A stretch of DNA of 64,000 bases from Alteromonas stellipolaris (GTDB lineage: Bacteria; Pseudomonadota; Gammaproteobacteria; Enterobacterales; Alteromonadaceae), in the NCBI RefSeq assembly GCF_001562115.1, contig NZ_CP013926.1:310001-374000 (forward strand). Direction: 5' to 3'. This document shows, piece after piece, positions 13,828 to 27,477 of this stretch (its first letter is position 1; every line of letters starts with the position of its first letter). The notes under the pieces were generated by a model. That model saw nothing but the letters and a program-made list of their open reading frames with translations, was not told the origin of the DNA and did no database searches. A program made the position numbers and the translations under genes.

Positions 13828-15972
13828 CTACACCGCTTTAACAGTATAAATAAGCGCGGTTTGCGGGAATAATACCGGCATTTGCATACCGTACTTCATT
13901 AACGCTTCACCGCTAAATACTTGCCCATCGGTTTGTTGCAAAATAGACGGAGAGTATTCTTTTAAGGTACCCGGCCATACGCGTTCAAGCGTGTATGACT
14001 TATCAGCATCAAGCCCCGCAAAATAGAAGCGAGACGGCATGGTACGGCCAGTTTCTTTTACGCTGTTGTACGCAAATATACCTTCAGATTTATCTTTCGA
14101 TACATAGCCAAATTTCACGTTAAGGCCATCGTCATCCATACGGAATAAATCGCCGCCGTGGGTAATATGGCGGTATTTTTTATATAGCGAAATAGCCGAT
14201 TTTAGGGTCTCTTGCTCATGGTCAGTAAGTTCACGAGGGTCCATCTCAATACCCATGTGGCCAAACATCGATACTGCTGAACGAATCTCAATAGGTAAGT
14301 TACGCCCTGTAATATGGCAATCACGAGGCCCTACGTGTGCACCCATCACTTCAGAAGGGAAGAAGTATGAGAAACCCCGCTGAATGTACAAGCGGTCTAA
14401 TGCATCGTTAGAATCTGACGTCCAAAACCGGTCGGTGTGAGGTAAAATGCCCAAGTCCACACGGCCACCACCAGAACAACAGCTTTCAATTTCAATACCC
14501 GGATGTGCTGCTTTAACACGGTCAATTAGGGTATATAAAGCCGCCATTTGGCCATGCATTGCAGGTTTACCTTTAAGGTTTCCTGGATGATTCACATCGC
14601 GGTTCATGTCCCACTTAATATAGCTAATTTTAGGGTAGGCCCTTAGTACGTCTGTGATGACTTTATAAAGGTACTCAACCACTTCAGGGTTAGTTAAATC
14701 AAGTACATACTGATTTCGAAACGGAACATGAGGGTTATTCTTGGTGTGCAGTGCCCATTCAGGATGTGCGCGGTACAAGTCGCTATCTGGGTTAACCATT
14801 TCTGGTTCAAACCATATTCCGAATTCCATGCCTTTATCGGTAACGTGGTCAATAAGCCCATCTAGCCCTTCCGGGTAAATGGCTTCATCAACAGTCCAGT
14901 CCCCTAAGCCCGCTTTGTCGTTTCTACGGCCTTTAAACCAGCCATCATCTAATACAAAACGTTCAATACCTAGCGGCGCTACTCTATCAGCAAGGGCTTT
15001 AAGTGTGGCTTCATCGTGGTCGAAATAAATACCTTCCCACGTGTTGTAGTGAACAGGGCGGGGCTTGTAATTTGCACTGGTGTTGTCAGCGCTGTGGGTT
15101 AACACATTGCTTCGAATAAAGTTATGAAACTGCTGTGAAAGAGATGAAAAGCCAGCGTCGCCGAACCCTGCATAAAGCACAGGCGATGTATAACTTTCAC
15201 CCGCTTTAAGCGTCACTTCACCTGGAAACAATAGCTCGCCAAATTGAACGTAGCTTCTGCCATCGGCCATCATTTCAGCGCGGAATTTATGGTTAGCTGA
15301 AGCACCTAAATGAAAGCCGAAACACTCGCCGGCAAGCTCACCGGTTCCATTAGCATACGCAATTAAACCTGGGAAAGTATCGTGAGATGTTTTGCCGCGG
15401 CGGTTTTCACGCACATAACTACCGAAGAACAAGTCATGATCGGTAGTTTGAAATTCATTAGACCATCTACCTTCAAAGCTTTTAATTTTGCTCATGGTAG
15501 TTGGCAAGGCAAGACTCGCCGCATTTAAGTAATTTAACTGTAAGGTGCTTTCACCTTGGTTTTCGATACTTGAGGTAAATGTAGCTACTGTCGTTTCAGC
15601 ATCTAGCACTACCCGAGTAATCAATTGCATTTTTCTGTCGGCATCAACCGCTGTAAACGTTACGCTGGTATCGGCTTGCTCAATGTTTGATAAAGTAAAA
15701 CCTGCCGACCATTGATCTGCATCCCCAGAAATTTCAAGGCCAGGTGAGCCCGTCACCCCTTCACCGTGGGTTGGTACCAATGAAATAGGAGGCTCGATAA
15801 CCGGCGCACATTTCGCTTCTTGGCGGGTGTTAAGCAGCGCAAGCATCTCTTGTGTTGTTGCATTGTTCAACTGCTGGCCGTAGTAAATCAGAGTAGGCAT
15901 GCGCCCTTGGCAGTCAAAAATTAAAGTCGTTTTTTCATTGGATAAGCGAGCGAAGGCCGATAATGACGACAT
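13828..15972 (-). CDS. Alpha-galactosidase, glycoside hydrolase family 36
   Basis: A 714-residue enzyme of the usual GH36 length, with an N-terminal beta-sandwich (~1-300) and a catalytic TIM barrel. Signature motifs are FVLDDGWF (340-346), the nucleophile Asp455 in KWDMNRD and the acid/base Asp520 in WTSDSND; CCSGGGR (498-504) is also typical. It hydrolyses terminal alpha-1,6-galactosyl residues such as in melibiose and raffinose. No signal peptide is seen, so cytoplasmic action on imported galactosides is inferred. It follows the symporter gene on the same strand but is separated by a strong terminator and carries its own LacI-type operator at 16078-16091, so it is probably a separate transcription unit under shared control with the receptor gene. 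Confidence 0.93.
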   Translation of the reverse strand: MSSLSAFARLSNEKTTLIFDCQGRMPTLIYYGQQLNNATTQEMLALLNTRQEAKCAPVIEPPISLVPTHGEGVTGSPGLEISGDADQWSAGFTLSNIEQADTSVTFTAVDADRKMQLITRVVLDAETTVATFTSSIENQGESTLQLNYLNAASLALPTTMSKIKSFEGRWSNEFQTTDHDLFFGSYVRENRRGKTSHDTFPGLIAYANGTGELAGECFGFHLGASANHKFRAEMMADGRSYVQFGELLFPGEVTLKAGESYTSPVLYAGFGDAGFSSLSQQFHNFIRSNVLTHSADNTSANYKPRPVHYNTWEGIYFDHDEATLKALADRVAPLGIERFVLDDGWFKGRRNDKAGLGDWTVDEAIYPEGLDGLIDHVTDKGMEFGIWFEPEMVNPDSDLYRAHPEWALHTKNNPHVPFRNQYVLDLTNPEVVEYLYKVITDVLRAYPKISYIKWDMNRDVNHPGNLKGKPAMHGQMAALYTLIDRVKAAHPGIEIESCCSGGGRVDLGILPHTDRFWTSDSNDALDRLYIQRGFSYFFPSEVMGAHVGPRDCHITGRNLPIEIRSAVSMFGHMGIEMDPRELTDHEQETLKSAISLYKKYRHITHGGDLFRMDDDGLNVKFGYVSKDKSEGIFAYNSVKETGRTMPSRFYFAGLDADKSYTLERVWPGTLKEYSPSILQQTDGQVFSGEALMKYGMQMPVLFPQTALIYTVKAV

Positions 15973-16212: not shown

Positions 16213-17676
16213 TTACTTAGCTTCTTCTTCTTTGTACAAAGCCAAACTAAATTCAGCTTTCTGATTGAAGATGACCTTGTTAGATATTAGTGCAAATGAT
16301 ACACAGGCAATCAGAGTGACAAACATTAAGTGAATGTAGTGCAGCCCAAAAGGTGCATACATAGGAGAGAACTCAAAAGACATTGCCGAGTACAAGGCGA
16401 CACCAAAGAGTACCGAACCAATAGCCGCATTCGCATGAACGTTTCTAAACAACAGGCCCACAATGAATACCGATAAGATAGGCATGCTTAACAATCCGTA
16501 AAGCTGTTGAATAAGGTTAATAATGCTATCGGCTTGCTGGTAAACAGGGATTAGCGCTAACGACACTAAACAAAGCAGTACCGTAACGTAACCACTGAGT
16601 TTTGGAACATTTGGTGTCTTGTTAACGTAGCTTTCGTGAATATCACACACATACAAAGCAGTGGCTGAGTTCAAGTTACTATTGAATGTAGTCAGTACTG
16701 CTGCAGCCATTGCCGCTGCGAATACACCCGACAACCAATCTGGTAATACAGTGGCTACAATTTTTCCGTAAGCACTGTCACCAATATCGCCAAACAGTTT
16801 GTAAGATACTATGCCTGGGATCACGATGATTGCTGGCACGATTAGTAAGCGTATACCTGCTGCGGCAAATACACCCTTTTGTGCTTCTTTCAATGATGGC
16901 GCAGCCATAGCACGCTGAGTAATAACCTGGTTGGTTCCCCAGTAAAACATCTGAATGAAGATCATACCGGTGAGTAGTGTATGCCATGGAATTGGTGAGT
17001 CGTTGTCGCCAATCAGTGTTAGTCGCTCTACTGGAATACCATCGAAGTTATAATCGATCGCTTGAAGTGCCAATATAACCACTAACACAGCCATAGTAAG
17101 CAGTAATACGCCTGAGTAAGTATCTGAAACCGCAACGGCTCTAAGACCACCGAAAATAGCGTACAGCGCACCTACAACTACAAAAGTTACTGCGATGTAC
17201 ATAAGAGGTAAATCTACACCGAACATAGACTGCATAAATAATGAGCCAGAGTAGATAACCGCTGGGCAAAAAATTAGCGCACTACCTAAAAAGAACAATG
17301 CACTAATTACTGCTCGAATGTGTTTATCGTGATAGCGCTGTTCTAGCAGCTCTGTGGTCGTGGTGCATTTGAATTTGTAGTAAACCGGTAAGAATACCTT
17401 GGCTAAAACAAATAAACCTACCACAGCGGAAAACTCCCACAACGCAAGAAGCGCCATTTGGTTTCCGTTCATACCTACTAATTGATCGGTACTCAGGTTC
17501 GTTAGCGTGATACTACCGGCTACGAAGTACCAAGCAAGGCCACCACCAGCAAGAAAGTATTCTCGATTTTGGTTTTGCGAACTACGATTTTGGCCGCGAC
17601 AACTTAAATAGGTTAAAAAACCGATTAGGGCAGTCACGAATACAAAAACAGACACTTGGATAGTGCTGGAAAACAT
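16213..17676 (-). CDS. Sodium/solute symporter (SSS/SglT-like), probable galactoside or galactose transporter
   Basis: A 487-residue inner-membrane protein with about 13-14 hydrophobic segments. The N-terminal region (REYFLAGGGLAWYFVAGS, LTNLSTDQLVGMNG) matches the SGLT branch of the sodium/solute symporter family, in which bacterial sodium/galactose transporters are found. GAGGAGC lies 8-10 bases before the ATG. It is the last gene of a tightly spaced minus-strand operon: 21 bases after the SapC-like gene and followed at once by a strong terminator. Together with the neighbouring alpha-galactosidase, it probably imports galactose or an alpha-galactoside with sodium; the exact sugar cannot be read from sequence. 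Confidence 0.88.
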   Translation of the reverse strand: MFSSTIQVSVFVFVTALIGFLTYLSCRGQNRSSQNQNREYFLAGGGLAWYFVAGSITLTNLSTDQLVGMNGNQMALLALWEFSAVVGLFVLAKVFLPVYYKFKCTTTTELLEQRYHDKHIRAVISALFFLGSALIFCPAVIYSGSLFMQSMFGVDLPLMYIAVTFVVVGALYAIFGGLRAVAVSDTYSGVLLLTMAVLVVILALQAIDYNFDGIPVERLTLIGDNDSPIPWHTLLTGMIFIQMFYWGTNQVITQRAMAAPSLKEAQKGVFAAAGIRLLIVPAIIVIPGIVSYKLFGDIGDSAYGKIVATVLPDWLSGVFAAAMAAAVLTTFNSNLNSATALYVCDIHESYVNKTPNVPKLSGYVTVLLCLVSLALIPVYQQADSIINLIQQLYGLLSMPILSVFIVGLLFRNVHANAAIGSVLFGVALYSAMSFEFSPMYAPFGLHYIHLMFVTLIACVSFALISNKVIFNQKAEFSLALYKEEEAK

Positions 17677-17697: not shown

Positions 17698-18447
17698 TTA
17701 TGACTTGCTGGTTTCGAATTTAATATTGCTTACAGAGCGGTCAGGGAATTTCGTGTTATGGAATCGAATTAACCTGTTTACTTGAAAGATAGAACCAAGA
17801 ATATTGAAAACGACAGAAAGGACATTTTTTTGATTTAACGTATTTAGCTCTTCAGCGGTGAGAGCTTGAATACGGTGTTCGTTAAGGGTGGCTAAACCGC
17901 CAACCCGCTGTTGTGTGTTATCAGAAAACTCAATGACTAAATCGACAGGTTGAATCAGGCCTAATTCCGCTATTTCATTAAGAATACTTGCCGTTTGCGA
18001 CATGGCTGACACGCGCTCTTTAAGTAATTTTTTCTTGTTGTCAAAATACGCAGTCGGTCGATTGGTCGATAAATAAAGTGCCTCGCCCTCACTGTGAGAA
18101 ACAGCAGGTGAGTGGGTATCAATTAATACTGTAGGCTCTTGCTCAGCCGTTTCAAATTGAAGCGTAAAAGGTAGCGTCTTCAAACTAAGTGGTGTGTAAA
18201 GTGCCTGCCAAGATTGCTTAATTTCAAACACATTTTCACCCGGCGCTAAACCACAAAGAGCAGATAGTGCCCATTGATTAGCATTCGATACTTTACTGAA
18301 AAACAGGGGATATTCACCCGCAGCTTGTATCGCTTCGCCTATTTCAATATTGACCAAATGTGATGTTGAAAACTGGCTAATAAGCTTGCTTTCATCGATA
18401 CGAATTTGGTTATGTTTTTCTGGTGATACAGTTTCAAAGTTCGTCAT
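17698..18447 (-). CDS. SapC-family protein
   Basis: A 249-residue soluble protein. The pattern (HLVNIEIGEAIQAAGEYPLFF near the start, WALSALCGLAPGENVF, then YLSTNRPTAYFDNKKKLL) is that of the SapC family first described from Campylobacter S-layer loci. The biochemical role of the family is not established. In marine proteobacteria such genes repeatedly occur beside TonB-dependent receptors and tryptophan-halogenase-like genes, as they do here: the gene lies 15 bases after the halogenase-like gene and 21 bases before the symporter gene. No signal peptide or membrane segment is visible. It may assist modification or handling of the imported sugar, but that is inference. Confidence 0.82.
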   Translation of the reverse strand: MTNFETVSPEKHNQIRIDESKLISQFSTSHLVNIEIGEAIQAAGEYPLFFSKVSNANQWALSALCGLAPGENVFEIKQSWQALYTPLSLKTLPFTLQFETAEQEPTVLIDTHSPAVSHSEGEALYLSTNRPTAYFDNKKKLLKERVSAMSQTASILNEIAELGLIQPVDLVIEFSDNTQQRVGGLATLNEHRIQALTAEELNTLNQKNVLSVVFNILGSIFQVNRLIRFHNTKFPDRSVSNIKFETSKS

Positions 18448-18462
18448 GCTTTTATCGTTCCA

Positions 18463-19998
18463 TTACCCTTCTAACCATTGCGAAATATAATCGCGATGGT
18501 TAGGAAGGCTACTTAATTTTTGTTGAGTAATGAGCTTATTTTGACTCATTACTTTATCTGCAAGCGCTTGATCTCGATAGAAGTGAGACTGCAAACTAAA
18601 GTCGGGAGAAAAACCCATGCCGTAAAGCACATACTGATAACTTGCAGCAGGAAAAAGCTCTATAGCCGCCGAAAAGTCGGCTATCTGAGGGCCTCTATAT
18701 TTCCATATCTCAAGATCTTCTTTTAATGATTCAGGAATGGAAGATGGGTCTCTATTCGCTACCCAATAAGGCTCGCTTCGCTGGTTGAAAATATAATGCA
18801 GTTTTAGAAAATCGATAATACGTTGCCAGCGATACTGCATTTGCTTATTAAATCGTTGGCTTACAATAGGCATAGCAGCTTGGGGAAGCGGCATTTGCTC
18901 AGCAATATATCGTGCCGATATTTCAATTAACATTAACGCGGTGGCTTCAAGGGGCTCTACAAAACCAGCAGAAAGGCCTACACCAACACAGTTTCCTTTC
19001 CAGATTTGCTTTCTATAACCCGATTCGAACCGGATAACTCTCGCCTTTAACTTAGCGTCAGTGTCGCCCACGTAGTTACGAAGAATAGACTCGGCTTGAT
19101 CGTCAGAGGTGAAGTCCGTAGAGAAAACATGTCCAACGCCGCGTCTTGAAGATAAGCCAATGTCCCAAATCCATCCCGCTTCTTGTGCGGTCGCTTGGGT
19201 GTAAGGCTTTATCTCATAATCGCCATCGTAAGGCACATGTAAGGCAATAGCAGAATTATTGAATAGCACATCATTAGTGGAAACAAGGGGTTCTTTTAAT
19301 GACTCACCAAGTAGCAATGAGCGAAAACCAGAACAATCCACAAACAAGTCTGCATGGTATTGTGAGCCATCATTTAATTGAATTGATTCAATATTGTCAC
19401 TGCCATGAGCTTTTTTGACACTGTCGACGGTAGCGACTTTATGGCTTACCCCTAGCTTGTCTTTGCAAAACTCTTTAAGTAAGTCGGCAAATGCACCGGC
19501 ATCTAAATGATAGGCATAATTTGATTGCGCGCTACTGTATTCCGCTTCGCTTAACGTACGCGGTGCCATGTTTTGTTCGCACACATGCTGCTGGAAATTG
19601 GTCGCATTAGCAAAGTTGGCGATATCATCAAGGTATGGCGCCATTTCAACTCGGCCATAACCTAACGGTACGGTGAAAGGGTGGTAGTAAGCGTCACCTT
19701 GGGGTTTTACCCAGTTAACGAATTTTCCACCTTGCTTAAATGCTGCAGAGCAGCGTCTAAACACTTCTTTTTCCGATAAACCAATATCTTTTAGCGTATT
19801 GCGCATGGTAGGCCAAGTGCCTTCACCCACACCAACGGTTGGAATGTCACTAGATTCTATTAAGGTAATATCGAGCCCACATTCACTAGGCCCACTGTTG
19901 TGTTTGGCTGCAATAATAGCCGCAGACAACCAGCCAGCGGTTCCGCCGCCAACAATGACAATACGTTGCTTAGATGAATGCTGAGAAGACTGTGCCAT
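18463..19998 (-). CDS. Tryptophan 7-halogenase-family flavoprotein
   Basis: A 511-residue flavoprotein. The N-terminal FAD motif is GGGTAGW (17-23), with VGVGEGTWP at 55-63. FKQGGKFVNW (87-96) contains two lysines, one likely matching the catalytic lysine of PrnA/RebH-type halogenases. The halogenase signature WxWxIP is present only as W276-I-W278-D-I-G281, with glycine in place of proline; FVEPLEATA follows at 346-354. FADH2-dependent halogenases of this family chlorinate or brominate aromatic rings, but members in sugar-uptake loci have no settled substrate. Its place between the receptor and SapC-like genes, 15 bases from the latter, argues against indole biosynthesis and for a role linked to glycan uptake. 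A flavin reductase partner is not in the window. Confidence 0.85.
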   Translation of the reverse strand: MAQSSQHSSKQRIVIVGGGTAGWLSAAIIAAKHNSGPSECGLDITLIESSDIPTVGVGEGTWPTMRNTLKDIGLSEKEVFRRCSAAFKQGGKFVNWVKPQGDAYYHPFTVPLGYGRVEMAPYLDDIANFANATNFQQHVCEQNMAPRTLSEAEYSSAQSNYAYHLDAGAFADLLKEFCKDKLGVSHKVATVDSVKKAHGSDNIESIQLNDGSQYHADLFVDCSGFRSLLLGESLKEPLVSTNDVLFNNSAIALHVPYDGDYEIKPYTQATAQEAGWIWDIGLSSRRGVGHVFSTDFTSDDQAESILRNYVGDTDAKLKARVIRFESGYRKQIWKGNCVGVGLSAGFVEPLEATALMLIEISARYIAEQMPLPQAAMPIVSQRFNKQMQYRWQRIIDFLKLHYIFNQRSEPYWVANRDPSSIPESLKEDLEIWKYRGPQIADFSAAIELFPAASYQYVLYGMGFSPDFSLQSHFYRDQALADKVMSQNKLITQQKLSSLPNHRDYISQWLEG

Positions 19999-20067
19999 GA
20001 ACTACCACTAAGTATGCGATTTATTTTATTTATTCATAGATTAACTGAAATAGCCAATTAACCTATG

Positions 20068-20095
20068 AATAAATGGCAGGGTTCTCACCCTGCCA
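20068..20095 (-). terminator. Hairpin in the receptor-halogenase gap, partial terminator or mRNA-stabilising element
   Basis: Perfect 9-base arms TGGCAGGGT and ACCCTGCCA (20074-20082 and 20087-20095) enclose a four-base loop. On the minus strand it is followed by TTTATT, a weak U tract. It starts 9 bases after the receptor stop, so it could raise receptor mRNA above that of the downstream genes without fully stopping transcription. Confidence 0.6.
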
Positions 20096-20103
20096 GTATA
20101 TTC

Positions 20104-22920
20104 TTAGAATGAACCTCGAATACCTACTGCGTAACGAGAGCCGTTATCTTCAATAGAGTATGTTTGGTCAGCAAAGCGACCAACCTGTGAAAGTTCTTCT
20201 TCTGTTACGTTAATGCCTTCAAAGAACACAGTGAAATGCTCGTTGATGTCATAACTTGCACTTACATCCCACTGACCGTAAGTTTCTGTGGTTACTGGCT
20301 CGCCAGTAGCACCGCCTACAGAAGTGTTATCAAGTGCAAACAAGAAGGCTTCACGGTTGTTAAATGCAACACGTGCCTGGAATGCGTCTCTTTCGTAGAA
20401 CATAATCAAGTTCTGAGAATCACCAAGACCTTCAAGTGCAAACGTTTGTGTAACGTCATCAGATACTTCAGCATCACTGTTTACAACAGTCGCGTTAGCA
20501 GTAATACCGAAACCGTTATCCCAAACGTGAGTTAGCGCAACTTCATAACCATTAACCGTTGCAGTTTCACCATTTTGAGGGCGAGTTACTGTGTAAATCT
20601 CGCTTTCGCCATTTAACTCTTCAGTGTCAGCGACTACGTCACGAGTTGGATCCGTAGGGTCAAGTTGAACACCTACTGCACAAGTATCTTCTGCACATCG
20701 GTAACCGTTCGCTGCACTACGATCTGTCATAGAATAAGATTCTTCACCAGATAAGGTAACGATGAAGTTTTCAACTTCTTTACTGAACAATGCAAATGAG
20801 AACACAGAGTCGTCACTGTAGTACCACTCAAATGAGATATCCCAGTTTTCAGCTTCGAAAGGCTTAAGGTTAGGGTTACCACCACTCGCTTGTAAGTTCT
20901 GACGACGAGGTTCACCGAACGTAGTCGCTGGCGACATTTGATCCATAGTAGGACGAGATAATGAGTCGTAACGTGAGAAACGAACAATCATGTCTTCTTG
21001 AACTTCTAACTTCACGTTGATGCTTGGAAGAACATTAGCGTAAGAGCTTGAACCAGTAATATCTTCAGCTGGTGCGAAACGGTTAGCGAACAACGTTAAG
21101 TCGGTGGTTGGAACGATATCAGAGATAAATGCTTGAACCGCAGTAACCGAAACGTTGGTCTCTTCGTAACGAGCTCCAAAGTTCATGGTTAACGGCATAT
21201 CACCGATGTCGTATCCAAACTCAAGCTGTGCGTAAAGCGCAGTAACATCTTCATCGATATTGTAGTAGTTAGGTTGCAGTGTTGGTATTACTGGTGCACC
21301 TTGCGACGCTAGGTAGTCAAGGTATGCATCACCGTCATAAGTGTACCAAGTGTCAATCAAACCGCTGAAGTAGTTGTTTGCTGTAAATGGACGAATGTTT
21401 AGTTCATCGATTGGAGCTTCTGTGCCGTAACCGCAGAATAAACATTCTGAAGCAAACATTTGGTAAACGTATTTTTCACGCTCTGAACGAAGAATACCGA
21501 AATCTGCTTTACGGAACACGTCAGAGTCTGGCAAATATGTAAAATCAGCTTTGTATTCAGTTACTTCGTCATCAGACGCTACCGTGTTTCCTAGGTCGTT
21601 GTAATGAAGGCGGTTTAAAGCAATATCTGGTAGTTGACCGTCTACAAAACCATCATGACGAACGGTTGGAACGCCACCCGTGCCGTCGAACTCATAGTTA
21701 TTGATGATACCAACAACGTTAAAGCGACCTTCGCCAGCGATGTCGTTCTCTGCAGTAGAGTTAGAAACATCAAACGTTGCTGAAAGTGCATCGTTAATTT
21801 GCCAATCAACATTAAGTCCGAAACCTTTACTGGTTACGTCACGAACGTTACGAGTAGAAGATACGAAGTCAGAAGCAGGGTTACCACTACCTTGGTGCAA
21901 ATCAATTTCTTGTGTGAATTGAATTGCGGTGCCTGTTTCTGGGTTGATGGTAGCCGAGCCCACACGATCTGGCTCAAACCATGATGCTAAATCAGTTACT
22001 TGAGAATCAACTTCAAATTTTGATACAAAACCATCAAGAGTAATAGTTACGTCATCAGTAGGTGCGTATTGCGCAACCAAAGATGCGTTAGTACGAGTAC
22101 GCTCTTGCTGATCTACGATTTGATCCCAGTTGCGAGGCAGGTAAACGTTTTCAGCAATTACGCCGTCGTTACGGTTTGAAAGCGTTAAACCTGGACGCCA
22201 GCCCGCGGTTTGAATTCGGTTAATTTGAACTTCACGTTCCTGATGAGAAACGGCGAGCAATAGACCAAGTTTGTCGTCTGCAAAGGTATTGCTTACTAAG
22301 AAAGAGGCTTGAGGAGATACTTCCTCAGACAAACTTTCGTACATACCTTTAACGCTGCCTACTGCTTGGAATCCATCGTAATCGAAAGGACGAGCAGTAG
22401 AAACGTTGATAGTAGAGCCGATGCCACCTGATTGAAGGTTAGCAACGCCACTCTTATAAACATTAGCACCTGTAATTTGGTCTGCGGCTAAAATGTCAAA
22501 GTTAAACGCGCGACCCGCGTCATCAGAAGCTAACTGACGACCATTTACAAGTACAGTATTGAACTGAGGACCGAAACCACGCACAGTAACTTGTTGACCT
22601 TCACCACCACTACGGTCAATTGACACACCCGTAATACGTTGTAGTGATTCAGCAACGTTCAAATCTGGGAATTTACCCAAATCTTCTGCAGCGATACCAT
22701 CAGAAACAGCTAAGTTTTCTTTCTTGTCAGCCATGGCACGCTTCAAGCTGCTTACAATACCGCGTACTTCGATAACCTCAACAGGGGCATCGTTCGCAGA
22801 GCTTGTATTAGCTTCTTGAGATAGTGCAACTGGCGCGTATAGGGCAGAAGCGACAGCAACACCTAAAAGTGAGCGTTTCGCGATAGGACCTATCATTGAT
22901 GTGTTGGTTTTATGTGTCAC
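20104..22920 (-). CDS. TonB-dependent outer-membrane receptor
   Basis: A 938-residue receptor. The longest frame begins 16 codons upstream, but a GTG at 22920 preceded by GGAG at 8-base spacing leads directly into a standard signal peptide (KRSLLGVAVASALYAPVALS-Q) and is preferred. A plug domain follows: VIEVRGIVSSLKRAM, LGKFPDLNVAESLQRITGVSIDRSGGEG and TVRGFGPQFNTVLVNGRQ are typical, and the rest is a beta barrel ending in RGSF with a terminal Phe. This plug sequence is characteristic of the large marine carbohydrate-type receptor group. It is the first gene of the minus-strand galactoside operon, with an 18-base operator-like palindrome ~170 bases upstream. The ligand is inferred to be a galactose-containing oligosaccharide. 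Confidence 0.92.
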   Translation of the reverse strand: MTHKTNTSMIGPIAKRSLLGVAVASALYAPVALSQEANTSSANDAPVEVIEVRGIVSSLKRAMADKKENLAVSDGIAAEDLGKFPDLNVAESLQRITGVSIDRSGGEGQQVTVRGFGPQFNTVLVNGRQLASDDAGRAFNFDILAADQITGANVYKSGVANLQSGGIGSTINVSTARPFDYDGFQAVGSVKGMYESLSEEVSPQASFLVSNTFADDKLGLLLAVSHQEREVQINRIQTAGWRPGLTLSNRNDGVIAENVYLPRNWDQIVDQQERTRTNASLVAQYAPTDDVTITLDGFVSKFEVDSQVTDLASWFEPDRVGSATINPETGTAIQFTQEIDLHQGSGNPASDFVSSTRNVRDVTSKGFGLNVDWQINDALSATFDVSNSTAENDIAGEGRFNVVGIINNYEFDGTGGVPTVRHDGFVDGQLPDIALNRLHYNDLGNTVASDDEVTEYKADFTYLPDSDVFRKADFGILRSEREKYVYQMFASECLFCGYGTEAPIDELNIRPFTANNYFSGLIDTWYTYDGDAYLDYLASQGAPVIPTLQPNYYNIDEDVTALYAQLEFGYDIGDMPLTMNFGARYEETNVSVTAVQAFISDIVPTTDLTLFANRFAPAEDITGSSSYANVLPSINVKLEVQEDMIVRFSRYDSLSRPTMDQMSPATTFGEPRRQNLQASGGNPNLKPFEAENWDISFEWYYSDDSVFSFALFSKEVENFIVTLSGEESYSMTDRSAANGYRCAEDTCAVGVQLDPTDPTRDVVADTEELNGESEIYTVTRPQNGETATVNGYEVALTHVWDNGFGITANATVVNSDAEVSDDVTQTFALEGLGDSQNLIMFYERDAFQARVAFNNREAFLFALDNTSVGGATGEPVTTETYGQWDVSASYDINEHFTVFFEGINVTEEELSQVGRFADQTYSIEDNGSRYAVGIRGSF
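22140..22152. promoter_or_regulatory. Intragenic copy of the galactoside operator 13-mer
   Basis: GGTAAACGTTTTC inside the receptor coding region is identical to bases 23092-23104 of the upstream operator, about 950 bases away. It may be an auxiliary operator like those in other LacI-family systems, or simply coding sequence (it encodes Glu-Asn-Val-Tyr on the minus strand). Confidence 0.3.
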
Positions 22921-23089
22921 TATGTTTTCTCCGTATTTCGGCTGTGTTTTACATATTTTAATTAACATTTAGCTTATATTTGGCATCTTGACCAAGCTAG
23001 TTAACATTTTCTTTACACATTCTTTAACCCAAAGTTCAATTTATTATTATTAACGCTATGAATTTTATAGGGTTTTATTTGTAAGGAAA

Positions 23090-23213: not shown

Positions 23214-24698
23214 TTAACTGCAGCGAATGCGAGCAACGGCGTTTTTCCAGCCGTCATAGGCCTTATCGCGCTCTTCTTTTGAAAGTCGAGGTGTGAAAAT
23301 ACTATCGCTTTTCCAGCACTCGGTAAGAGAATCAACAGAGGTAAATACACCAGCTTGAAGGCCAGCAAGGAATGCGGCACCAAGTGCGGTGGTTTCAGTA
23401 ATTTCGGGGCGTTCAACTTCTGCGCCCAATACATCAGACAAGAATCCCATTACCCAATCGTTTCGAGACATCCCGCCATCGACTCTAATGGTCGTTGGCC
23501 TTGCGCCATCACTTTCCATGGCTTTTTGTAAGTCTTTGGTTTGATAACATACCGATTGCAAACCCGCGGCAACAATTTCGCTAATGCCGGTGTCTCGAGT
23601 TAGGCCTAGAATCGCACCTCGGGCGTCGGGATCCCAATAAGGAGCGCCTAATCCGGTAAATGCTGGTACAAGGAATACACCATTATCTTGTCGCGCTCTT
23701 TGTGCCAAGGCTTCGGTTTCGGATGCATCGTCAATAAGCTTCAAGCCATCCCTTAGCCATTGCACAGTAGCGCCGGCCATAAAAATACTGCCCTCTAAGG
23801 CGTATGTGGTTTTACCATTCAGCCTGTAGCCGACGGTAGTTAACAAACGGTTCTTAGATTGAAGCGGCTCATCACCTGTATTTAAAATCATGAAGCAGCC
23901 TGTACCATAGGTACTTTTTGCCATGCCTTTTTCGAAACAAGCTTGGCCAACAAGCGCAGCCTGCTGGTCGCCGGCTACACCTTGAATAGGGATAGTACAG
24001 CCCAAGATATCTTTACTCACAACACCAAATTCATCAGCACAATCCATGACTTCAGGAAGCATTGATTTAGGAATATTAAAGGTGGTGAGTAAACGCTCAT
24101 CCCAACATTGTTTATTAATATCGAACAACATAGTACGGGATGCGTTGGTCGCATCGGTTTTGTGAGATTCGCCGTTGGTCAAACGCCAAATTAAAAAAGT
24201 GTCCACCGTACCGAAAAGAAGATCGCCAGCTTCGGCTTGTTCTCTCGCACCTTCAACGTTGTCTAAGATCCAAGCCAGTTTAGAGGCTGAAAAATAAGGG
24301 TCTAGCAACAAACCTGTGGATTCGGTGATATGCGCAACCAAACTCTCATCGTCATCGAGTTCGCGGCATTGCTGAGCGGTACGTCTGTCTTGCCACACTA
24401 TAGCGGGGTATACAGGCTTTCCTGTGTCTTTGTTCCAAACCAACGTGGTTTCACGTTGGTTGGTGATGCCAACCGTAGCGATATCTTCAGGTGATAACGA
24501 GCACTTATCAAATACCTGTTTCATGGTAGTGGTTACGCTTTCCCAAATTTCTTCAGGATCATGCTCTACCCATCCATCTTGAGGATATTTTTGAGAAAAC
24601 TCTTGTTGCGCAACGGCTACAATGGCGCCATCTGGTGCAAAGATAATGCTACGTGAACTCGTAGTTCCTTGGTCTATGGCAAGAATATATTGGCCCAT
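23214..24698 (-). CDS. glpK: Glycerol kinase
   Basis: Phosphorylates glycerol to sn-glycerol-3-phosphate with ATP in the cytoplasm. The start at 24698 gives 494 residues, beginning [22 protein letters not shown] lies 7 bases upstream, whereas the open frame 18 bases further up has no better signal. FGGY-kinase hallmarks are visible: DQGTTSSR at the start, [21 protein letters not shown], the second-domain phosphate loop [14 protein letters not shown] and [11 protein letters not shown] near the end. It is divergent from glpR across ~157 bases containing GlpR-type half-sites and ends at a terminator. A glycerol facilitator gene (glpF) usually adjoins glpK in enterobacteria but is absent here. 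Confidence 0.96.
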
Positions 24699-24763
24699 GA
24701 CACGTCTCCTGAACATAATTTGCTAAGAGTTTGCACCATTTACACCAGTTTAACAATGCTATA

Positions 24764-24855: not shown

Positions 24856-25614
24856 ATGAACCAAACGCAAAGACACGAAAAAATTGTTAGCTTTATCAAA
24901 CAAAATGGCTTCATGTCTATTGACGACTTGGTCACTCGCTGTGACGTTACCCCCCAAACTATTCGTCGCGATCTAAACCAGCTTGCTGAGGCTGGTATTG
25001 TTAGTCGATACCATGGTGGCGCTGGGCTTAATCGAAGTTGGGAGAATACCCCTTATCAAGAACGCAAAACACAAAACAGCGAAGTAAAAGAACGAATCGC
25101 TGAGGCCGTGGCTGACATGATCCCCGACGGAGCTTCATTATTTATAAATATTGGCACCACCACCGAAATGATAGCGAGTAAGTTGCTTAATCATAAAAAC
25201 TTGCACGTGGTAACAAATAACATTCATGTCGCGACCATTCTTTCTGCGAAAGAAGACTTTTCAGTGATTATCGCCGCGGGCGAAGTACGCTACCGAGATG
25301 GCGGTATTATTGGGGAAGCCACCTGCGACTTCATTAGTCAATTTCGAATGGATTACGGCATTATAGGCATAAGTGGAATAAGTGCCGACGGTGCCTTGCT
25401 TGATTTTGACTTTAGGGAAGTAAAAGTATCCCAAGCGATACTGGAACACACCCAACACGTTATTCTTGCAGCAGATTACAGTAAGTTTGAGCGCCGAGCC
25501 ATGGTAGAACAAGGGCATATTTCTCAGGTAGATTGCCTAGTGTGCGACCAAACACCGCCTCCTGCTATTCGAAAAATTATCGACGAAAACAATATCAGTT
25601 TCATTAAAGCCTAA
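24856..25614 (+). CDS. glpR: Glycerol-3-phosphate regulon repressor (DeoR family)
   Basis: A 252-residue DeoR-family regulator. The N-terminal winged helix-turn-helix (residues ~5-58) includes MSIDDLVTRCDVTPQTIRRDLNQLAEAG, with the family's characteristic recognition helix QTIRRDL. The C-terminal effector domain shows INIGTTTEMIASKL, LHVVTNNIHVA and YGIIGISGISADGALLDFD, the last matching the GlpR-type pattern. The expected ligand is glycerol-3-phosphate, which releases DNA. AAGGA lies 7-8 bases before the ATG. It is divergent from glpK and 336 bases upstream of glpD; sites with TGTTCG half-repeats occur before both targets, as expected for local control. Confidence 0.93.
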   Translation: MNQTQRHEKIVSFIKQNGFMSIDDLVTRCDVTPQTIRRDLNQLAEAGIVSRYHGGAGLNRSWENTPYQERKTQNSEVKERIAEAVADMIPDGASLFINIGTTTEMIASKLLNHKNLHVVTNNIHVATILSAKEDFSVIIAAGEVRYRDGGIIGEATCDFISQFRMDYGIIGISGISADGALLDFDFREVKVSQAILEHTQHVILAADYSKFERRAMVEQGHISQVDCLVCDQTPPPAIRKIIDENNISFIKA

Positions 25615-25885: not shown

Positions 25886-25914
25886 TTGACATGTTTTCTT
25901 TTTGGTTGTCAAAT
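25886..25914 (+). promoter_or_regulatory. Candidate sigma70 promoter of glpD
   Basis: A consensus TTGACA (25886-25891) and TCAAAT (25909-25914, four of six consensus bases) are separated by 17 bases. The promoter overlaps the nominal first codons of the longest open frame, supporting the downstream glpD start at 25951. Confidence 0.55.
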
Positions 25915-25950
25915 AGCCAGCATGCTAGTGAAGCCGAAAGGGGCGAGAAC

Positions 25951-27477
25951 ATGAATCAGAATACAAATAGTACACAAACCGTTGACGTATTAGTGGTTGG
26001 CGGCGGTGTAAATGGTGCCGGAGTAGCATTAGATGCGGCTGGTCGCGGACTTTCGGTAGCACTATGTGAAAAAGGCGATCTTGCAGGTGCAACGTCTTCG
26101 TCTAGCAGCAAGTTAATTCATGGTGGTTTACGTTATTTAGAGCATTATGAGTTCCGCCTTGTAAAAGAAGCACTCGCCGAGCGTGAAGTACTATTAGAAA
26201 AAGCCCCACATATTATGTGGCCTTTACGTTTTCGTTTACCTCATCAAAAGCATCTTCGTCCTGCATGGATGATTCGTATTGGTTTGTTCTTGTACGATTC
26301 ACTAGCCAAACGCAATGTATTACCGCGTTCAAAGAAAATGTCTACGTCACCTACAGGCCCGTTGGTTAACGATATTACAACCTGTTTTGAATACTCAGAT
26401 GGTTGGGTAGATGATGCTCGTTTAGTGGTATTAAATGCACTAGCGGCGCAAGACCAAGGTGCTAGCATCTATACACGTACTGAATGTATTAGTGCTGAAA
26501 AACAAGATAAGTTATGGAAAGTCACTTTAAAAGACGCATTAGGGAAAACGTTTACAATTAATGCTAAGGCTGTTGTCAATGCAGCTGGCCCATGGGCTGT
26601 TTCATTCCTAGATAGACTTGCCGACACCAAAAATCCTAACGCAATGCGTATGGTGAAGGGCAGTCATTTCATTGTGCCTAAACTTTACGACACAGAAGAA
26701 GCTTATATTCTTCAAAATAAAGATGGCCGTATTGTTTTTGTTATTCCTTACGAAGATGATTTTTCACTCGTTGGTACTACCGATGAGAACTATGTTGGTG
26801 AGCCATCGCAAGCCGCTATTTCTGAAGATGAAACTGAATATTTGGTCGAAGTGGTAAATACGTACTTTAAAACGAAAATTGATGAAAGCGATATTGTTCA
26901 TAGCTACAGTGGCGTGCGCCCATTGCTTGAAGAGAAAAATGCGTCTGCTCAAGAGCTAACTCGCGATTATAAAGTGGAACTAAGCGGAACTGAGTCTTCG
27001 CCAATATTGCTTAATATTTTCGGTGGTAAAATTACGACCTATAGAAAACTTGCCGAGCATGCAGTAGATAAGCTAACTAGTTTGTTTCCAAAGGCAGGGA
27101 AAGCCTGGACGAAAGATGTACCACTTCCAGGTGGCGCGTTCACTAATAAAGAAGATTTGATTAAACAGCTTCAACACGACTATCCATGGTTATCTGAGTC
27201 GTTAGGGGTTCGCTATGCGCGTCAATACGGCATGTTATGTATTAAGTTCCTTGAAGGCAAAAACGGACTCGATAGCATGGGTGAGAACTTTGGTGCCGAC
27301 ATGTACAAAGCTGAAGTTGACTACCTTATTGATCACGAATGGGCGATGTCCCTTGAAGACGTAATTTGGCGCCGTACTAAACATGGTTTACGTTTAAACC
27401 AAAGCGAGCAAGCCAACCTAGAAAGCTATATAACGAGTCGCGTTTCAAAAAGTGTCGATATGCAGCAATCTGCGTAG
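25951..27477 (+). CDS. glpD: Aerobic glycerol-3-phosphate dehydrogenase
   Basis: An FAD-dependent, membrane-associated enzyme that oxidises glycerol-3-phosphate to dihydroxyacetone phosphate and passes electrons to quinones. The frame is open from 25891, but the start at 25951 (MNQNTN) is chosen because AAAGGGGCGAG precedes it and a promoter overlaps the upstream codons, giving 508 residues. The FAD-binding motif VVGGGVNGAGVALDAAGRG is near the N-terminus, followed by family motifs SSSSSKLIHGGLRYLEHYEF and GGKITTYRKLAEHAV; the C-terminal domain includes EWAMSLEDVIWRRTK, a typical GlpD ending. It is followed by a strong terminator, and tandem GlpR half-sites precede it. Confidence 0.95.
   Translation: MNQNTNSTQTVDVLVVGGGVNGAGVALDAAGRGLSVALCEKGDLAGATSSSSSKLIHGGLRYLEHYEFRLVKEALAEREVLLEKAPHIMWPLRFRLPHQKHLRPAWMIRIGLFLYDSLAKRNVLPRSKKMSTSPTGPLVNDITTCFEYSDGWVDDARLVVLNALAAQDQGASIYTRTECISAEKQDKLWKVTLKDALGKTFTINAKAVVNAAGPWAVSFLDRLADTKNPNAMRMVKGSHFIVPKLYDTEEAYILQNKDGRIVFVIPYEDDFSLVGTTDENYVGEPSQAAISEDETEYLVEVVNTYFKTKIDESDIVHSYSGVRPLLEEKNASAQELTRDYKVELSGTESSPILLNIFGGKITTYRKLAEHAVDKLTSLFPKAGKAWTKDVPLPGGAFTNKEDLIKQLQHDYPWLSESLGVRYARQYGMLCIKFLEGKNGLDSMGENFGADMYKAEVDYLIDHEWAMSLEDVIWRRTKHGLRLNQSEQANLESYITSRVSKSVDMQQSA

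What the first reader, a model, noticed from the sequence alone, without database searches (positions are those of the whole stretch)
17698..22920. Halogenase-like flavoprotein and SapC protein inside a sugar-uptake operon
The operon order receptor, halogenase-like, SapC-like, sodium symporter links a putative FADH2 halogenase to glycan uptake. Neither protein has a known role in carbohydrate use, and repeated association in marine bacteria suggests an undescribed step, such as oxidation, halogenation or detoxification of an aromatic-substituted algal glycan or of a periplasmic partner. This is the best candidate here for an uncharacterised system.
Basis: partly seen in the sequence, partly recalled or inferred. 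Interest (0 to 1): 0.7.

Follow-up and report, generated by a model that had tools for sequence, protein, structure and literature searches.

The report
Halogenase companion of sugar receptors
A tryptophan-halogenase-like enzyme, often with a protein of unknown fold (SapC), is encoded together with one class of outer-membrane nutrient receptor in many bacteria, whatever the nutrient, which suggests that it serves the receptor itself in a way that is not yet worked out.

Summary
Confirmed: the minus strand encodes TonB receptor (TIGR01782), flavin-dependent halogenase (PF04820, FDH), SapC (PF07277), sodium symporter and GH36. The association is real but not tied to galactosides. In this genome all six FDH genes (five loci) follow a TIGR01782 receptor, with differing neighbours. 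In the order, 104 of 120 FDHs lie within 6 kb downstream of a receptor, same strand. FDH and SapC co-diverge with their own receptor inside genomes (p=0.0005). Some relatives add an FIH/JMJD5-like Cupin_8 protein and DUF6445, which carries a complete Fe(II)/2-oxoglutarate motif. SapC models at pLDDT 95.9 without a PDB match. Best reading: a receptor-dedicated modification module, target probably the receptor chain; the chemistry is inferred. A candidate residue (W330) lost support after correction for ancestry. The cargo here is probably an alpha-galactosyl-glycerol: glycerol genes flank 12 of 18 such loci, 0 of 138 others. BrvH-like 'orphan' halogenases are nearest to the second FDH group of this companion family (one member tested).

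The parts
20104..22968 (-). TonB-dependent receptor, TIGR01782 subfamily (954 aa from the first ATG; the signal peptide probably starts at M25, read by eye)
   Evidence: TIGR01782 613.6 bits; plug and barrel Pfam domains; AlphaFold2 model pLDDT 83.3 with TonB-receptor matches
18463..19998 (-). Flavin-dependent halogenase-like protein, probably cytoplasmic (511 aa)
   Evidence: PF04820 411.3 bits; nearest solved chains 2pyx, 9ltb, 9lu2; GxGxxG, K88, W276, W278 and E351 each in at least 204 of 205 family members
17698..18447 (-). SapC (PF07277), probably cytoplasmic, no recognised enzyme motif (249 aa)
   Evidence: PF07277 157.9 bits; model pLDDT 95.9; no PDB fold match at E<=0.001
16213..17676 (-). 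Sodium:solute symporter (inner-membrane importer of the locus)
   Evidence: PF00474 137 bits, TIGR00813 201.1 bits
13828..15972 (-). GH36 alpha-galactosidase without evident signal peptide
   Evidence: PF02065 410.7 bits; N-terminal hydropathy
23214..24716 (-). Glycerol kinase GlpK, upstream neighbour; part of the proposed galactosyl-glycerol pathway
   Evidence: TIGR01311 721.5 bits; in 7 of 18 SSF-FDH loci and 0 of 138 other FDH loci
24856..25614 (+). DeoR-family regulator GlpR
   Evidence: PRK10906 345.2 bits, cut-off 331; in 10 of 18 SSF-FDH loci and 0 of 138 others
25891..27477 (+). Glycerol-3-phosphate dehydrogenase GlpD
   Evidence: PRK12266 754.5 bits; in 7 of 18 SSF-FDH loci and 0 of 138 others

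Best explanation
The halogenase, here with SapC, forms a cytoplasmic module dedicated to an individual TonB-dependent receptor, not to a particular sugar. Shown: the genes sit with the receptor across many kinds of neighbour, are inherited with it, keep their catalytic residues, and some relatives add two more oxygenase-type proteins. Inferred: FDH halogenates (or hydroxylates) an aromatic residue of the newly made receptor chain before export, with SapC as adaptor or substrate-holding protein; the modification tunes ligand binding, assembly or stability at the cell surface. In this locus the receptor most likely imports an alpha-galactosyl-glycerol (floridoside-type), which the symporter and GH36 process to galactose and glycerol.
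For: Receptor, not sugar: 6 of 6 FDH genes of this genome; 104 of 120 FDH ORFs of 300 aa or more in the order set and 73 of 87 in the named set have a receptor upstream within 6 kb on the same strand. Five FDHs counted there as misses (L110 two, L142 two, L138) do follow a receptor that my profile did not catch (the L110 and L138 receptors confirmed by Pfam). Genome level: TIGR01782 over cut-off in 33 of 35 FDH-positive genomes but 3 of 80 FDH-negative ones tested, of 113. Co-divergence inside genomes: receptor-FDH r=0.56 against 0.10 shuffled, receptor-SapC r=0.77 against 0.13, both p=0.0005. SapC: 46 of 70 within 3 kb of an FDH. Protein-modifier hints: the Cupin_8 companion's best solved chains are FIH and JMJD5, HxD...H in 47 of 47; DUF6445 HxD...H in 24 of 24, Arg in 23 of 24, and all 11 genomes with DUF6445 among 148 carry an FDH. 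The window FDH's best NCBIfam hit, far under cut-off, is QhpG, which dihydroxylates a Trp inside a protein (PMC7876137, abstract start and passages). BrvH and Xcc4156 act on indoles and not on free Trp, and a peptide substrate was proposed (PMC7336383, passages); they are nearest to the one member of the second FDH group that I tested, L128, which is directly downstream of a receptor. Cargo.
Against: No modified receptor has been seen. The one residue that stood out, W330 (120 of 135 FDH-linked against 16 of 50 unlinked), weakened with more unlinked receptors (114 of 134 against 31 of 69) and lost support on the tree (1.5 pairs for, 0.7 against); 20 linked receptors lack it. At least 85 of the TIGR01782 receptors in the capped list have no FDH or SapC within 10 kb (87 candidates picked by eye). 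SapC is within 3 kb of only 63 of 121 FDHs. Five FDHs of the order set have no receptor that I found. Other FDHs' best NCBIfam hits are not QhpG (CmlS for L128, TIGR02032 for L121; QhpG again for L166). The Cupin_8 companion also matches C2orf60 (3al5), an RNA-modifying enzyme as I recall. Co-divergence can arise from simple inheritance as an operon; the last FDH of multi-FDH loci showed none beyond shuffling (p=0.39). SapC's role is a guess.
Confidence: 0.42

Rival explanations
1. FDH halogenates a diffusible aromatic small molecule (indole-type signal, cofactor or ligand) in the cytoplasm, and the receptor or its signalling uses the product. SapC helps in that pathway.
For: Residues K88 and E351 are intact in 205 of 205; characterised relatives act on indole derivatives (PMC7336383, passages).
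Against: I recognised no aromatic-biosynthesis genes among the recurring neighbour groups, though many neighbours were not identified. Each first FDH co-diverges with its own receptor inside a genome, which a shared small product would not require. Up to 9 FDHs per genome.
Confidence: 0.25
2. The module modifies another envelope component (TonB/ExbBD partner, lipoprotein or surface glycan) that works with this receptor class.
For: Several oxygenase-type proteins plus SapC suggest more than one target.
Against: No such component stood out among the recurring neighbours (many neighbours not identified); FDH and SapC appear cytoplasmic (a crude measure).
Confidence: 0.12
3. One reading: FDH and SapC oxidise, halogenate or detoxify an aromatic-substituted algal glycan.
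For: The window operon pairs them with GH36 and a symporter.
Against: A GH36 like the window's in only 14 of 156 FDH loci; module shared with GH20, alpha-amylase, GH3, GH43 and FecR-type neighbours and with an S9 peptidase in L110; enzymes appear cytoplasmic.
Confidence: 0.05
4. Passenger genes: FDH and SapC are kept near receptors by operon inheritance and joint regulation without acting on them.
For: Co-divergence fits this too; many receptors lack the module.
Against: The order of the genes changes while membership is kept (FDH-SapC, SapC-FDH, FDH-FDH, with or without Cupin_8 and DUF6445); near-perfect conservation of the catalytic residues; three proteobacterial classes.
Confidence: 0.1

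Closest known systems
Flavin-dependent indole halogenases BrvH (6frl) and Xcc4156 (6y1w, code recalled), and the chains 2pyx, 9ltb, 9lu2
   Same: Same Pfam family PF04820. The window FDH is nearest to 2pyx, 9ltb, 9lu2; L128, a member of the second FDH group, is nearest to 9luq, 6frl and 6y1w. Conserved Lys and Glu, WxWxI.
   Different: The native substrates of BrvH and of the Xanthomonas enzymes are unknown (PMC7336383, passages). The window protein has G instead of P in WxWxIP. Activity untested here.
QhpG, flavoprotein that dihydroxylates a Trp residue inside a protein
   Same: Best NCBIfam hit of the window FDH; acts on a protein whose gene is in the same cluster (last point recalled).
   Different: 31 bits against a cut-off of 240: not a member. 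QhpG hydroxylates, does not halogenate.
CUT loci (carbohydrate utilisation loci with a TonB-dependent receptor) of Xanthomonas and Caulobacter
   Same: Receptor, degradative enzyme, inner-membrane transporter and sugar-related regulator together (PMC1790865, passages).
   Different: 'halogenase' and 'SapC' do not occur in that paper's main text; supplements were not seen.
FIH / JMJD5 protein hydroxylases
   Same: The Cupin_8 companion found in relatives is nearest to them among solved chains (70 and 60 bits).
   Different: This companion is not in the window locus; substrate unknown.

Membership tests
Flavin-dependent halogenase (PF04820) | Family profile score | tested here: met
   411.3 bits against 21
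Flavin-dependent halogenase (PF04820) | GxGxxG FAD motif, catalytic Lys (PrnA K79) and Glu (PrnA E346) | tested here: met
   G17, G19, G22, K88, E351 in 205 of 205, G18 in 204; the assignment to PrnA numbering is recalled, not aligned here
Flavin-dependent halogenase (PF04820) | WxWxIP motif | tested here: inconclusive
   W276 and W278 in 205, I280 in 203 of 205, but the P is G in the window protein and in at least 90% of the 19 sequences of A2 (G281)
Flavin-dependent halogenase (PF04820) | Halide incorporation into an aromatic substrate | not testable with these tools
   needs an assay
SapC family (PF07277) | Family profile score | tested here: met
   157.9 bits against 28.9
TIGR01782 receptors (TonB-Xanth-Caul) | Score over curated cut-off | tested here: met
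   613.6 bits against 310
CUT locus | Receptor with carbohydrate enzyme, inner-membrane transporter and sugar-related regulator nearby | tested here: met
   GH36, SSF and the DeoR-family regulator GlpR beyond glpK; induction and transport not tested
QhpG-type protein-Trp monooxygenase | Score over curated NCBIfam cut-off | tested here: not met
   31 bits against 240
Fe(II)/2-oxoglutarate oxygenase (DUF6445 companion of relatives) | HxD...H...R motif | tested here: met
   H113, D115, H206 in 24 of 24, R224 in 23 of 24; no PDB relative by sequence; fold and activity not tested

The most novel reading that the evidence does not exclude
A dedicated set of cytoplasmic oxidative enzymes (flavin halogenase; in some relatives an FIH-like hydroxylase and the DUF6445 2-oxoglutarate oxygenase) with the SapC adaptor modifies specific residues of nascent outer-membrane TonB-dependent receptors before export. 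This would be a so far undescribed post-translational, probably halogenating, modification of nutrient receptors and the native role of the orphan BrvH/Xcc4156-type halogenases.
Probability: 0.33. Interest if true: 0.88.

Novelty: new variant of a known kind. Interest (0 to 1): 0.62.

Why it matters
Several purified and crystallised halogenases of this family have no known natural substrate. Tying the family, by genome context and co-divergence, to one receptor class gives a testable substrate hypothesis and a plain experiment (mass spectrometry of the receptor). If true, bacteria halogenate their own surface receptors, which would change how nutrient uptake in the sea and in soil is understood. 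SapC also looks like an unsolved fold, and DUF6445 gains a predicted enzyme class.

Tried and rejected
W330 as halogenation site: the top-ranked discriminating column in the first comparison, invariant in the 62 rows of A4, and at the end of a long strand (307-330) of the model. Rejected as evidence after adding unlinked receptors and the tree test; on the smaller set the tree gave 3.6 pairs for and 0 against, not significant. Receptors from genomes called FDH-negative: 2 of 8 have W there.

A precursor peptide (RiPP-like system): the window gaps are 105, 15 and 21 bp and the median receptor-FDH gap is 95 bp, so there is little room, but a peptide of about 30 residues would fit and very short ORFs were not searched.

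SapC by sequence or fold: no PDB relative by profile at E<=10, no Foldseek match at E<=0.001 in PDB or viral models. Trp content does not mark linked receptors (1.23% against 1.40%). The signal-peptide measure is crude: it flags only 77 of 163 receptors, against 6 of 208 FDHs and 5 of 140 SapCs.

One FDH hit (L130) was lost to an antisense ORF, and in 7 of 80 named loci no FDH ORF was called, mostly for the same reason as far as I can see. One FDH is in both sets. In one search, 44 of 135 companion-bearing receptors have a single FDH as the whole same-strand run, but in many of these (Sphingomonas-type loci) SapC and Cupin_8 lie on the other strand. L291, at a contig end, was first counted as unlinked and dropped. 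In one search I passed 61 of the 62 linked receptors plus the window's. One search tested 80 of 113 FDH-negative genomes; four of them (G003, G026, G075, G112) had SapC. Window-like loci are related, so 12 of 18 against 0 of 138 is not a count of independent events; flanks differ between the two sets, and only close relatives (over 200 bits) of the seed proteins were counted.

Print: no paper of the library holds halogenase, SapC and TonB together; bioRxiv and most subscription papers are not held, so earlier mention is possible. No paper on a bacterial floridoside locus was read (listing only).
Full report
1. What is there. The minus strand carries receptor (20104-22968), halogenase-like flavoprotein (18463-19998), SapC (17698-18447), sodium symporter (16213-17676) and GH36 alpha-galactosidase (13828-15972), with gaps of 105, 15, 21 and 240 bp. 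Upstream lie glpK (minus strand), glpR and glpD (plus strand).

2. The companion of the receptor, not of the sugar. The genome has six PF04820 genes and two PF07277 genes. All six FDH genes, in five loci, follow a TIGR01782 receptor on the same strand. The neighbours differ: GH1-like in L010, xylose kinase/isomerase and GH3-like in L011, sulfatase-like in L012, GH36 in the window, no sugar gene that I recognised in L009 (names other than GH36 read by eye). Only the window's locus has SapC beside it. In 148 genomes of the order, 35 have PF04820 (E<=1e-30) and 35 have PF07277. I fetched the 107 clusters of the places that I had typed. By strict gene walking 100 of 121 FDH ORFs lead back to a receptor in the same run, 60 directly; by distance 104 of 120 have one within 6 kb upstream. 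Of the 16 others, five have a receptor nearby in another position, one is at a contig edge, five (L110 two, L142 two, L138) follow a receptor my profile missed (those of L110 and L138 confirmed by Pfam), and five have none that I found. L110 comes from G051, a genome without a TIGR01782 match, and has an S9 peptidase in the run. In 80 named loci, mostly Gamma- and Alphaproteobacteria with two of Betaproteobacteria, the count is 73 of 87.

3. Genome level and co-inheritance. TIGR01782 receptors over cut-off occur in 33 of 35 FDH-positive genomes and in 3 of 80 FDH-negative genomes tested, of 113 (one of the three, G112, is a draft with SapC). Inside genomes, receptor distance predicts FDH distance (r=0.56; shuffled 0.10, sd 0.13) and SapC distance (r=0.77; shuffled 0.13, sd 0.25), each p=0.0005 with 2000 shuffles, on 74 and 24 comparisons; for the last FDH of multi-FDH loci there was no signal (8 comparisons, p=0.39). 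Relatedness of lineages is not removed from the genome-level count.

4. The other members. SapC lies within 3 kb of an FDH in 46 of 70 cases, and 63 of 121 FDHs have a SapC that near; the rest of SapC include a separate copy beside mraZ/rsmH-like genes (L013; by eye). Some relatives add Cupin_8 (PF13621) and DUF6445 (PF20043). Cupin_8 keeps HxD...H in 47 of 47 and is nearest to FIH and JMJD5. DUF6445 keeps HxD...H in 24 of 24 and an Arg in 23 of 24; it occurs in 11 of 148 genomes, all FDH-positive, and not in the window's genome. FDH residues K88 and E351 are invariant in 205.

5. Structures. SapC: pLDDT 95.9, pTM 0.90, no Foldseek match with E<=0.001 in PDB or viral models, no sequence relative in PDB. 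A missed fold is possible, since the second aligner was not available and no library of cellular models was at hand. Receptor: pLDDT 83.3, ordinary TonB-receptor fold, best match PirA.

6. Mechanism. FDH, SapC and, in some loci, two further oxygenase-type proteins, probably cytoplasmic (a crude measure), meet beside one constant partner, the receptor. FIH, JMJD5 and QhpG show that such enzymes can act on residues of proteins (FIH and JMJD5 activities recalled beyond their names). I therefore think that the module modifies the receptor chain before export, at about 0.4. I looked for the target residue by comparing receptors with and without companions. W330 stood out, but more data and the tree took the support away. 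The target is open.

7. Cargo. Among 156 FDH loci, 18 have the SSF symporter; 12 of these 18 also have glpK, glpR or glpD, against 0 of the other 138; GH36 is in 14 of 18. Blast groups add galT, galK, galE and a GH2/42-like enzyme (names read by eye). A galactosyl-glycerol would yield just galactose and glycerol. This is an inference; no paper on a floridoside locus was read (one search gave listings only).

8. Known or new. The families are known; CUT loci are known (PMC1790865, passages). An Alteromonas macleodii study lists receptor genes beside alpha-galactosidase and beta-N-acetylhexosaminidase genes without the words halogenase or SapC in its main text (PMC7190382, passages). In the held library no paper joins halogenase, SapC and TonB. 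BrvH and three Xanthomonas enzymes are described as halogenases of unknown native substrate with a suggested peptide substrate (PMC7336383, passages). BrvH and Xcc4156 (6y1w, code recalled) are nearest to L128, the one member of the second FDH group tested, and that group is also receptor-linked. I call it a new variant of a known kind (a CUT-locus component), with a bolder reading in the section on the most novel reading.

Noticed in passing
L110:3941-13312 and L142:2594-12029: Receptor of another subfamily, a conserved 261-aa protein (sulfotransferase-like by eye; no Pfam hit for the L110 copy), two FDHs and, in L110, an S9 prolyl oligopeptidase in one run: an FDH pair with a possible peptide rather than sugar cargo.
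   Followed up: partly
L121:11547-12305 and 23 relatives: DUF6445 carries a complete HxD...H...R motif, so it is probably an uncharacterised Fe(II)/2-oxoglutarate oxygenase.
   Followed up: partly
window:17698-18447: SapC model of very high confidence without a PDB fold match: a candidate new fold.
   Followed up: yes
L013:9004-9783 and similar loci L077, L094, L139, L157, L163: A second SapC type sits beside mraZ/rsmH-like cell-division genes (by eye), without FDH or receptor; possibly a general role.
   Followed up: no
L012:10273-12813: 846-aa protein without Pfam hit, encoded between receptor and FDH in this genome (beside sulfatase-like genes).
   Followed up: no
L206, L208, L209, L216 and others: The FDH-SapC-DUF6445 form of the module goes with sigma-factor-like and FecR-type genes (FecR by Pfam in L206; the rest by similarity), suggesting surface signalling by those receptors.
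   Followed up: partly
window:28235-32491: Looks like MSHA-type pilus/secretion genes ending in a secretin (by eye); ordinary.
   Followed up: no
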